Positions 2,010 to 10,757 of a stretch of 61,013 bases of DNA are shown here, piece by piece. The stretch covers positions 1 through 61,013 of IMG/VR virus record IMGVR_UViG_3300021962_006641, one strand, 5' to 3'. The DNA comes from a virus. Both the position numbers and the translations under genes were made by a program. Numbering within the stretch: position 1 is the stretch's first letter; each line of letters opens with the position of its first letter. The notes beneath the pieces are model-generated. The model saw only the letters and a list, made by a program, of their open reading frames with translations, did not search any database and was not told where the DNA came from.

Positions 2010-2051
2010 AAACTCCACTCATGAGTAAATATCTTTGAGTGGAGTTTTTTT
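2010..2051 (+). terminator. Strong intrinsic terminator after peroxiredoxin
   Basis: Perfect 12-bp stem AAACTCCACTCA / TGAGTGGAGTTT (2010-2021, 2036-2047), 14-nt loop, T-run to 2051. The next start codon (2052) directly abuts the T-run. Confidence 0.92.
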
Positions 2052-7244: not shown

Positions 7245-7410
7245 GTAAACAAATGTGACGGATCTCTAAGATTTGTAACATTGTTAAACACCCATCAACC
7301 GAGACCTATGGGGTGTATAAAAACGTCTCTCATACCCACAGTGGAGGGTGCTGTGGGGAATAATCGTAACGGTTCGTCCCCCCGAACTTTTATCTAACTC
7401 TCTTAAACAA
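7245..7410 (+). ncRNA. Structured psbA leader, PhotoRC-like candidate
   Basis: The untranslated leader contains three inverted repeats: ACACCC/GGGTGT (7288-7293, 7311-7316), CCCACAG/CTGTGGG (7335-7341, 7351-7357, 9-nt loop) and a small GTTCG/CGAAC hairpin just before the start region. None is followed by a T-run, so they are not terminators. PhotoRC RNA motifs are known upstream of psbA in marine cyanobacteria and cyanophages; assignment to that family is inference and needs a covariance search. Confidence 0.5.
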
Positions 7411-8493
7411 ATGACTGCTACACTTTCACGTCAAAAATCACAATCGAATACTTGGGAACAGTTCTGCCAGTGGGTAACTTCAACCGATAACCGTCTTTAT
7501 GTCGGTTGGTTCGGAACTCTGATGATTCCCTGCTTGCTTGCTGCTACCATTTGCTTCATTGTCGCATTCATCGCTGCTCCCCCTGTGGACATTGATGGAA
7601 TCCGTGAACCCGTTGCTGGTTCTCTGATGTACGGAAACAACATCATCTCTGGTGCTGTTATCCCTTCGTCCAATGCTATTGGACTGCACTTTTACCCAAT
7701 CTGGGAAGCTGCTTCCCTAGATGAGTGGCTCTACAACGGTGGACCTTTCCAACTGGTTGTATTCCACTTCCTGATCGGTATCTATGCTTACATGGGTCGT
7801 GAGTGGGAACTTTCCTACCGCCTGGGTATGCGTCCTTGGATCTGTGTTGCCTACTCGGCACCTGTTGCTGCTGCGAGTGCAGTGTTCCTGGTCTATCCTT
7901 TCGGTCAAGGTTCTTTCTCTGATGCAATGCCTCTGGGTATCTCTGGTACGTTCAACTACATGCTTGTGTTCCAGGCAGAGCACAACATCCTGATGCACCC
8001 CTTCCACATGCTTGGAGTTGCTGGTGTGTTCGGTGGTTCTCTGTTCAGTGCAATGCACGGTTCTCTGGTTACTTCCTCGCTGGTTCGTGAAACCACTGAG
8101 TCTGAATCACAGAACTATGGTTACAAGTTCGGTCAAGAAGAAGAGACTTATAACATTGTTGCTGCTCACGGTTATTTCGGACGCCTGATCTTCCAATATG
8201 CTTCCTTCAACAACTCTCGTTCGCTACACTTCTTCCTTGCTGCTTGGCCTGTTGTCGGTATCTGGTTTACTGCCCTGGGCGTATCAACAATGGCGTTCAA
8301 CCTCAACGGGTTCAACTTCAACCAGTCCATCGTTGATTCACAAGGTCGTGTCCTGAATACTTGGGCAGATGTACTTAACCGTGCTGGACTGGGGATGGAA
8401 GTTATGCATGAACGTAACGCCCACAATTTTCCTTTGGATCTCGCTGCTGCTGAAGCAACTCCTGTTGCTCTGACTGCACCTACCATTGGTTGA
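7411..8493 (+). CDS. psbA: Photosystem II reaction centre protein D1, 360 aa
   Basis: Full-length D1, five transmembrane helices, no intron. Ligands and signatures are present: [47 protein letters not shown], and the C-terminal [23 protein letters not shown], with the CtpA cleavage site after DLA. Start 7411 gives the conserved MTATLS N-terminus; the frame is open further upstream but enters the leader. The residue equivalent to position 130 is Glu (the high-light D1 form). Maintains PSII turnover during infection. Followed by a terminator, an endonuclease gene and psbD. Confidence 0.99.
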
Positions 8494-8499: not shown

Positions 8500-8513
8500 A
8501 ATCATTGTCGTGC

Positions 8514-8541
8514 AAAGGATCCTTCGGGATCCTTTTTTTTT
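8514..8541 (+). terminator. psbA terminator with UUCG tetraloop
   Basis: Nine-bp stem AAAGGATCC / GGATCCTTT around TTCG, then T9. Confidence 0.95.
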
Positions 8542-8548
8542 ATAAATA
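8541..8548 (+). promoter_or_regulatory. T4-type late promoter for the endonuclease gene
   Basis: TATAAATA, exact T4 consensus, 18 bp before the ATG at 8566 and inside the loop of the inverted repeat. Confidence 0.65.
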
Positions 8549-8565
8549 ATAATGCACGACAATGC

Positions 8566-9018
8566 ATGAATACCATGGCAAAAACAACTCAAACCACTGG
8601 CACTAAAACTTGTAGTAAATGTGGTATAACTAAAGATATTAATGATTTCTACAAGAGGGGTGGTAAAACTTCTCCTAATACCAGACACAATCATTGTAAA
8701 GAATGCACTAAAAGTAGAGTTGCTAAAACTTATTGGAATGATCCAAGTGTTTATCAAAACAATCATCTAAAAAGAAATTACGGCATAACTCTCAATGAAT
8801 ATTCTCAGATGCTTGCAGAGCAAAACAACCAGTGTGCTGTGTGTCACACTACTGATCCTGGTGGTAAGCATGGAAAGTTTGTGGTAGATCACTGCCACAC
8901 CACTGGTAAAGTTAGAGGGATACTTTGTAAACGATGTAACATTGCATTAGGGGAGGTTGGTGACAACATCAGCACCCTGGAAAAGATGATTGGTTACTTG
9001 AGCACAAACACTCATTGA
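8566..9018 (+). CDS. Endonuclease VII/HNH-type putative homing endonuclease, 150 aa
   Basis: N-terminal zinc finger (CSKCGITKDINDFYKR...HCKEC) followed by an endonuclease VII-type ββα-metal core: QCAVCHTT...FVVDHCHTTGKVRGILCKRCN (residues about 91-126), then the family tail ALGEVGDN. The catalytic region is VDHCH. The organisation matches the free-standing homing endonuclease F-CphI described next to psbA in Synechococcus phage S-PM2; the equivalence is inferred. Start 8566 (MNTMAK) or 8575; neither has a clear ribosome site. Lies between psbA and psbD. Confidence 0.85.
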   Translation: MNTMAKTTQTTGTKTCSKCGITKDINDFYKRGGKTSPNTRHNHCKECTKSRVAKTYWNDPSVYQNNHLKRNYGITLNEYSQMLAEQNNQCAVCHTTDPGGKHGKFVVDHCHTTGKVRGILCKRCNIALGEVGDNISTLEKMIGYLSTNTH

Positions 9019-10364: not shown

Positions 10365-10382
10365 GTACAGTTGCATAAGTTT

Positions 10383-10757
10383 ATGGAACTCTACAATTCT
10401 CCTCAAGCATATTTGTTTAACTTACACGTTACGAAATCGTCAGAAGCTAAACGAATATGGAGGAGAAACATTAGAGAAAAATGGGACCATAAATGTGCAT
10501 ACTGCGAATCTGATGTAGATATAACGATTGATCACATTGTTCCACTTTCAAAGGGTGGACTAGATTTTACAAACAATGTGGTTGCTTGTTGCAAATCTTG
10601 TAACCAATCAAAGGGACACACTCCTATGATGGAGTGGTATGAGAATCAAGAGTTCTTTACTGAAGCAAGAAAGAATGCTATTATCAACTGGATGGAAGCA
10701 AATACTGAAAAACCAGAGAGGTATAGATATCCAGCAAGACGTAACAATGCTTCTTAA
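10383..10757 (+). CDS. HNH endonuclease, 124 aa
   Basis: Metal-dependent nicking or cutting nuclease. Zinc-coordinating CAYCESD and CKSCNQSKG pairs flank the catalytic segment ITIDHIVPLSKGGLDFTNNV (DH, then N), the classical HNH order with zinc ribbons. Start 10383 (MELYNSPQAYL); a TTG at 10371 in frame is possible. It is unrelated in detail to the endonuclease VII-type gene between psbA and psbD, so the psbA-psbD region carries two nucleases of different families. Likely a mobile or homing-type gene; target unknown. Confidence 0.85.
   Translation: MELYNSPQAYLFNLHVTKSSEAKRIWRRNIREKWDHKCAYCESDVDITIDHIVPLSKGGLDFTNNVVACCKSCNQSKGHTPMMEWYENQEFFTEARKNAIINWMEANTEKPERYRYPARRNNAS

What the first reader, a model, noticed from the sequence alone, without database searches (positions are those of the whole stretch)
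8503..8564. Inverted repeat encloses a terminator and a late promoter ahead of the psbA-linked endonuclease
Perfect 12-bp arms (8503-8514, 8553-8564) flank the psbA terminator and an exact TATAAATA. The right arm ends two bases before the endonuclease ATG. Read-through RNA from psbA carries both arms and could bury the start codon; RNA starting at the internal late promoter lacks the left arm and would be free. This copies the logic known for T4 I-TevI, where an early-transcript hairpin blocks translation and a late promoter bypasses it, but in an unrelated gene and with a terminator added.
Basis: partly seen in the sequence, partly recalled or inferred. Interest (0 to 1): 0.8.

Follow-up and report, generated by a model that had tools for sequence, protein, structure and literature searches.

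The report
Homing endonuclease switch behind phage psbA
Between the photosynthesis gene psbA and a DNA-cutting "homing" gene of a cyanophage lies a compact switch (stop signal, late promoter, and an inverted repeat that could fold over the cutter's start in read-through RNA), and the start of the cutter's own RNA resembles the DNA site its relatives cut, which hints that the cutter represses itself.

Summary
The gene downstream is an F-CphI-type (Endo VII, DHHRN) homing endonuclease.

Terminator and late promoter are conserved in most psbA-linked F-CphI genes. The arms are not. They occur only in a small group (window plus four other contigs), where the whole 69-bp spacer is identical although flanking genes are mostly 64-83% identical. 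With no variation there is no covariation. In that group, opening the start region costs 11.7-15.4 kcal/mol in read-through RNA against 0.6-8.2 in 50 armless relatives, and 0.5-4.1 in late RNA. The lock is plausible but unproven. The conserved start is ATG 8575, not 8566, and there is no Shine-Dalgarno to bury.

A different feature is more general. The late RNA's predicted first base opens a repeated GCACGA leader. In two endonuclease subfamilies such leader repeats match the psbA homing site (14-mer and 13-mer; 0 of 400 shuffles; 113 control leaders reach at most 11). This suggests an I-TevI-like operator, in an enzyme family where I found no report of one. For the window itself this match is weak (10-mer, p about 0.1).

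The parts
7411..8493 (+). psbA (photosystem II D1), intronless
   Evidence: Pfam Photo_RC E=3e-89; ORF
8404..8430 (+). psbA segment equivalent to the F-CphI homing site / group I intron insertion site (insertion point between 8415 and 8416)
   Evidence: S-PM2 exon junction lies at the same codons; F-CphI targets this site according to PMC6083498 and PMC5931967
8503..8514 (+). left arm of the inverted repeat
   Evidence: identical in L028, L031, L033, L035
8514..8541 (+). psbA intrinsic terminator (stem 8514-8522/8527-8535, then T-run)
   Evidence: stem sequence differs with pairing kept among relatives (by inspection)
8541..8548 (+). T4-type late promoter octamer TATAAATA, overlapping the terminator T-run; predicted RNA start at 8554
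   Evidence: conserved position in most psbA-F-CphI spacers; S-PM2 late promoter NATAAATA (PMC2984593)
8553..8564 (+). right arm of the inverted repeat
8554..8559 (+). first GCACGA leader repeat, at the predicted +1
   Evidence: conserved in armless relatives; 10-mer TAATGCACGA matches the psbA homing site
8564..8569 (+). second leader repeat, GCATGA here, GCACGA in arm-bearing relatives
8575..9018 (+). F-CphI-type free-standing homing endonuclease (Endo VII / DHHRN), conserved start ATG 8575; alternative in-frame ATG 8566 is private to the window
   Evidence: Pfam Endonuclease_7 E=1e-24; about 50% identity to F-CphI; D105, H106, H108, R114, N122 present

Best explanation
The segment is the control cassette of a psbA-targeting, F-CphI-type homing endonuclease gene. 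(1) psbA transcripts end at the terminator. (2) The T-run of that terminator overlaps a late promoter, so the endonuclease gets its own late RNA, predicted to begin at 8554. (3) The leader carries two CACGA repeats; in the family these resemble the psbA homing site and probably serve as an operator through which the enzyme shuts off its own promoter. (4) In this small group an inverted copy of the first repeat and its flank also lies upstream of the terminator. Any psbA RNA that escapes termination then folds into an extended hairpin covering the segment just 5' of the endonuclease start (-22 to -11 from ATG 8575) and is poorly translated, while late RNA lacks the left arm and stays open. Shown: the anatomy, its conservation, the predicted energies, and the homing-site match in two subfamilies. 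Inferred: promoter activity, repression, and translational blocking.
For: Terminator plus TATAAATA conserved across diverse psbA-F-CphI loci, including samples not selected for the motif. Predicted +1 is the G of the first GCACGA in the TATAAATA spacers compared (octamer at -13 to -6 is T4 knowledge). Cost of opening the start region in read-through RNA is 11.7-15.4 kcal/mol in 5 arm-bearing loci against 0.6-8.2 in 50 armless loci, and 0.5-4.1 in late RNA of arm-bearing loci. Spacer 69/69 identical among arm-bearing loci whose psbA 3' ends are 76-83% and endonuclease genes 64-77% identical, for all but one closely related pair, L028/L031. Leader repeats match the psbA homing site: CACGA type 14-mer, CCATACC type 13-mer, 0 of 400 shuffles each; 41 HEG-negative spacers reach at most 9 and 72 ORF leaders at most 11. 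HEG+ intronless psbA lacks the GAGCGT form of the site (0/26) that HEG- psbA has in 19/59, Fisher p = 5e-4, not corrected for phylogeny. I-TevI has both a late-promoter hairpin and a homing-site-like operator (PMC2988022).
Against: Arms absent from most relatives, and invariant where present, so no covariation supports the pairing. No Shine-Dalgarno lies in the leader. The left arm persists in three HEG-loss alleles without the right arm (found by an exact left-arm search, so biased). In the window itself the homing-site match is only a 10-mer with p about 0.1, and the L008/L013/L115 leaders show no match beyond CACGA. Arm-bearing endonucleases do not form a supported clade, so the identical spacer may reflect exchange of the cassette rather than selection on the arms. 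No RNA data exist for these phages.
Confidence: 0.5

Rival explanations
1. The arms act on DNA, not RNA: two inverted GCACGA-containing sites flank the promoter and are bound by the endonuclease or another regulator, so the RNA hairpin is incidental.
For: GCACGA is conserved at the late start in relatives that have no arms and matches the psbA homing site; the left arm is an inverted copy of it.
Against: Perfect 12-bp symmetry extends beyond the 5-6 bp motif conserved in the family; armless relatives use direct, not inverted, repeats.
Confidence: 0.2
2. The arms are a by-product, for example of a single template-switch mutation that copied the leader in inverted orientation; the identical cassette then spread among phages by recombination, with no selected role for the pairing.
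For: One invariant version only; arm-bearing endonucleases are scattered in the tree; left arm retained after right-arm loss; terminator-promoter cassettes that mediate shuffling are reported in T4-like phages (PeSLs, cited in PMC4503421).
Against: A neutral insert should drift between phages whose flanking genes are mostly 64-83% identical, unless exchange is very recent.
Confidence: 0.25
3. The hairpin is an RNA processing site: read-through psbA-endonuclease RNA, or an antisense RNA like CfrI of S-PM2, is cut in the long stem, separating and protecting the psbA message.
For: In S-PM2 the CfrI antisense RNA is annotated across this spacer (PMC2984593); the stacked stem is about 20 bp.
Against: S-PM2 has no arms; no processing data; no CfrI-like promoter was identified in the window (by eye only).
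Confidence: 0.05

Closest known systems
I-TevI / I-TevII / I-TevIII, T4 segB and Aeh1 mobE late-promoter hairpins (PMC2988022)
   Same: Late promoter inside a hairpin that only longer upstream transcripts can form; homing endonuclease genes; T4-type phages.
   Different: Here the loop also holds a psbA terminator, no Shine-Dalgarno is present, the enzyme is of the Endo VII type, and the hairpin occurs in only one small group.
I-TevI autorepressor operator (Edgell et al. 2004, as reviewed in PMC2988022)
   Same: A copy of the homing site lies at the late promoter of the endonuclease's own gene.
   Different: Repeated two to three times at and after the predicted +1; enzyme family F-CphI / Endo VII; inferred from sequence only.
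F-CphI and its psbA locus in cyanophage S-PM2 (PMC6083498, PMC5931967)
   Same: Homologous enzyme (about 50% identical), same place between psbA and psbD, terminator, TATAAATA and GCACGA leader.
   Different: S-PM2 psbA has the group I intron; S-PM2 has no arms; the window psbA is intronless with a changed homing-site codon pair.
PeSLs of T4-like phages (Comeau 2014, Arbiol 2010; known here only through PMC4503421)
   Same: Terminator stem-loop joined to a promoter as a compact cassette near exchangeable genes.
   Different: The promoter here is late, not early.

Membership tests
F-CphI (DHHRN) homing endonucleases | Endo VII catalytic domain with D-H-H-R-N residues | tested here: met
   Pfam PF02945 E=1e-24; D105, H106, H108, R114, N122 present and conserved
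F-CphI (DHHRN) homing endonucleases | free-standing gene next to psbA | tested here: met
   same arrangement in S-PM2
F-CphI (DHHRN) homing endonucleases | cleaves intronless psbA at the intron insertion site | not testable with these tools
   Indirect only: HEG+ intronless psbA lacks GAGCGT at the site
Collaborative homing as in S-PM2 | group I intron in psbA protects the carrier | tested here: not met
   window psbA is uninterrupted
I-TevI-type translational hairpin with late-promoter bypass | late promoter placed so that late RNA lacks the 5' arm | tested here: met
   TATAAATA 8541-8548, predicted +1 8554, right arm starts 8553
I-TevI-type translational hairpin with late-promoter bypass | hairpin sequesters the ribosome binding site | tested here: inconclusive
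   stem covers -22 to -11 of the conserved ATG 8575, opening cost raised, but no Shine-Dalgarno is present
I-TevI-type translational hairpin with late-promoter bypass | pairing conserved among relatives | tested here: inconclusive
   identical in five loci, absent in 50 others, no covariation
I-TevI-type translational hairpin with late-promoter bypass | upstream transcripts read through into the endonuclease | not testable with these tools
   needs RNA data
I-TevI-type autorepressor | homing-site-like operator at the endonuclease promoter | tested here: inconclusive
   met for two subfamilies (14-mer and 13-mer); window itself only a 10-mer, p about 0.1
I-TevI-type autorepressor | enzyme binds the operator and represses transcription | not testable with these tools
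   needs gel shift and reporter assays
PeSL cassettes | early promoter joined to a stem-loop terminator | tested here: not met
   promoter is of the late type

The most novel reading that the evidence does not exclude
Endo VII-type homing endonucleases that target psbA control themselves by tandem decoys of their own target site at the transcription start. This would have arisen separately in two subfamilies, which copy opposite strands of neighbouring parts of the same psbA site, and one group would reuse an inverted copy of the decoy as an RNA lock around a terminator, so that one sequence acts as operator in DNA and as lock in RNA.
Probability: 0.3. Interest if true: 0.75.

Novelty: new variant of a known kind. 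Interest (0 to 1): 0.55.

Why it matters
Homing endonucleases are hard to tolerate unless held in check. In T4 the checks are a hairpin and an operator at a late promoter. If the same two solutions arose in an unrelated enzyme family next to a phage photosynthesis gene, that supports such control being a general requirement for selfish genes in lytic phages. The homing-site match would also let one read the likely target of an uncharacterised endonuclease from its own promoter, a directly testable prediction (here, for the CCATACC subfamily).

Tried and rejected
Arm conservation as proof of RNA pairing: rejected, because the arms are invariant or absent. A generic late-gene leader or ribosome-binding role for GCACGA: not supported, since GCACGA occurs only 15 times in the window and among 72 ORF leaders the only one with the homing-site 10-mer TAATGCACGA has the window endonuclease's own leader sequence. 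Rfam: no family covers the spacer; only PhotoRC-II, upstream of psbA, passes its threshold. Isolated phages: no isolate listed carries the arms. An I-TevI-like operator for the palindrome subfamily (L110, L146) is only suggestive (10-mer, p 0.02; 9-mer, p 0.1). The IMG/VR scan with TTTTTTATAAATA-GCACGA selects for the motif, so conservation claims rest on the endonuclease- and psbA-based searches. The S-BM4 psbA allele cut by F-CphI was not among the records listed. The two PeSL papers are not held in the library. In alignment A1 one row is a four-base stub given by mistake; A3 replaces it.

Full report
What is there. The window is a virus record of 61,013 bases, a cyanophage judged by its psbA-psbD neighbourhood. 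psbA (7411-8493) is followed by an 81-base spacer up to the conserved start codon at 8575 and by an ORF that Pfam assigns to Endonuclease_7, about 50% identical to F-CphI of cyanophage S-PM2. F-CphI is a characterised free-standing homing endonuclease with the Endo VII catalytic motif that targets psbA at an intron insertion site (PMC6083498; PMC5931967). The catalytic residues are present. A 12-bp repeat of this geometry is expected 0.49 times per shuffled window, 0.05 times if G/C-rich, so alone it is only moderately unusual.

Start codon. In all arm-bearing relatives the triplet at 8566 is ACG; the shared start is ATG 8575, and the protein alignment agrees. The right arm therefore ends ten bases before the start. 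The leader has no Shine-Dalgarno sequence.

Conservation. Searching IMG/VR with the endonuclease and with psbA gave psbA-endonuclease spacers not selected for the motif. Nearly all F-CphI-type ones have a terminator, then TATAAATA or a close variant, then CACGA-type repeats, then ATG. Terminator stems differ in sequence while keeping pairing (for example GGAACTC/GAGTTCC, GGATCC, GGGACCC, GAGACC, read by eye), which supports the terminator as an RNA structure. The arms occur only in the window and four other contigs (L028, L031, L033, L035; L034 duplicates L033, and L026, also fetched as L005, L109 and L198, is a contig identical to the window here). There the spacer is identical over 69 positions, apart from T-run length, while psbA 3' ends are 76-83% and endonuclease genes 64-77% identical for all but one closely related pair, L028 and L031. 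The arm-bearing endonucleases are not a supported clade, so cassette exchange is as possible as selection. Three further alleles (L128 and its near copies, L135, L178) keep the left arm but have lost the right arm and all or most of the endonuclease gene; these were found with an exact left-arm pattern, so their intact arm is partly a selection effect.

RNA lock. From the psbA stop onwards, freeing the 30 bases around the start costs 11.7-15.4 kcal/mol in arm-bearing loci and 0.6-8.2 in 50 armless ones; in predicted late RNA of arm-bearing loci it costs 0.5-4.1 (similar, where one armless locus, L115, reaches 13.2 through pairing with psbA coding sequence). The right arm lies beyond the terminator T-run, so it cannot help termination; it can only act in RNA that has already read through. 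This fits a fail-safe lock, but it is a prediction. The logic is known for I-TevI, I-TevII, I-TevIII, segB and mobE (PMC2988022).

Homing-site resemblance. With the octamer at -13 to -6 (T4 knowledge), +1 is 8554, the G of GCACGA, and the same spacing holds in the TATAAATA relatives compared. The repeat resembles the psbA homing site, which begins ATGCAYGAR. In L050 the match to psbA at the insertion site is 14 bases (ATGCACGAAAGAAA), against 8 elsewhere in psbA; in L071 it is 14 against 9. A different subfamily (L116, L167, L177) has a tandem repeat TTCCATACCA after its promoter, matching 12-13 bases on the other strand of the same psbA region (AACTTCCATACCA at -25), against 9-11 elsewhere. 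No shuffled leader out of 400 reached this for L050, L071, L116 or L177; for L167 the fraction was 0.003. Of 41 HEG-negative spacers none exceeds 9, and of 72 ORF leaders none exceeds 11. For the window itself the match is a 10-mer with p about 0.1, so the operator claim is made for the family and carried over to the window by homology. I-TevI shows the precedent: 15 of 20 bases shared between operator and homing site (PMC2988022).

Self-protection. Intron-bearing psbA with a recognisable exon 1 end always has GAGCGT before the intron (31 of 31); intronless psbA with an endonuclease never does (0 of 26), against 19 of 59 without one (Fisher p = 5e-4). This fits protection of the carrier by synonymous changes, but the sequences are related and the test is not corrected for that.

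Verdict. The late-promoter and terminator parts are well supported, the read-through lock is plausible for this small group, and the leader is probably an operator that copies the homing site. The kind is known; the enzyme family and the combination are, as far as I found, not reported.

Noticed in passing
window 7276-7371 +: PhotoRC-II RNA (RF01717, 79.9 bits) upstream of psbA.
   Followed up: no
window 10371-10757 +: A second endonuclease, of the HNH type (HNH_5), after psbD.
   Followed up: no
L110, L146, L148, L119, between the psbA terminator and the next endonuclease gene: A different Endo VII-type endonuclease has a TATAAT box enclosed in a palindrome TTAAAGTTAT..ATAACTTTAA (TTAAACTTAT..ATAAGTTTAA in L119, symmetry kept), in three of them behind TTGACT; looks like an operator over an early-type promoter.
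   Followed up: partly
L128 3584-3690, L135 3582-3690, L178 3590-3700: Endonuclease-loss alleles that keep the left arm and the 5' half of the terminator; L128 and L135 retain a 3' remnant of the endonuclease gene.
   Followed up: partly
psbA homing-site codons in 85 intronless and 40 intron-bearing loci: Synonymous codon use at the homing site differs between psbA genes with and without a linked endonuclease (GAGCGT 0/26 against 19/59).
   Followed up: partly
L047, leader of the F-CphI-type gene: Three instead of two GCACGAAAGAAA-type leader repeats.
   Followed up: no
window 2010-2047: The only other 12-bp perfect inverted repeat in the window (AAACTCCACTCA, loop 14).
   Followed up: no
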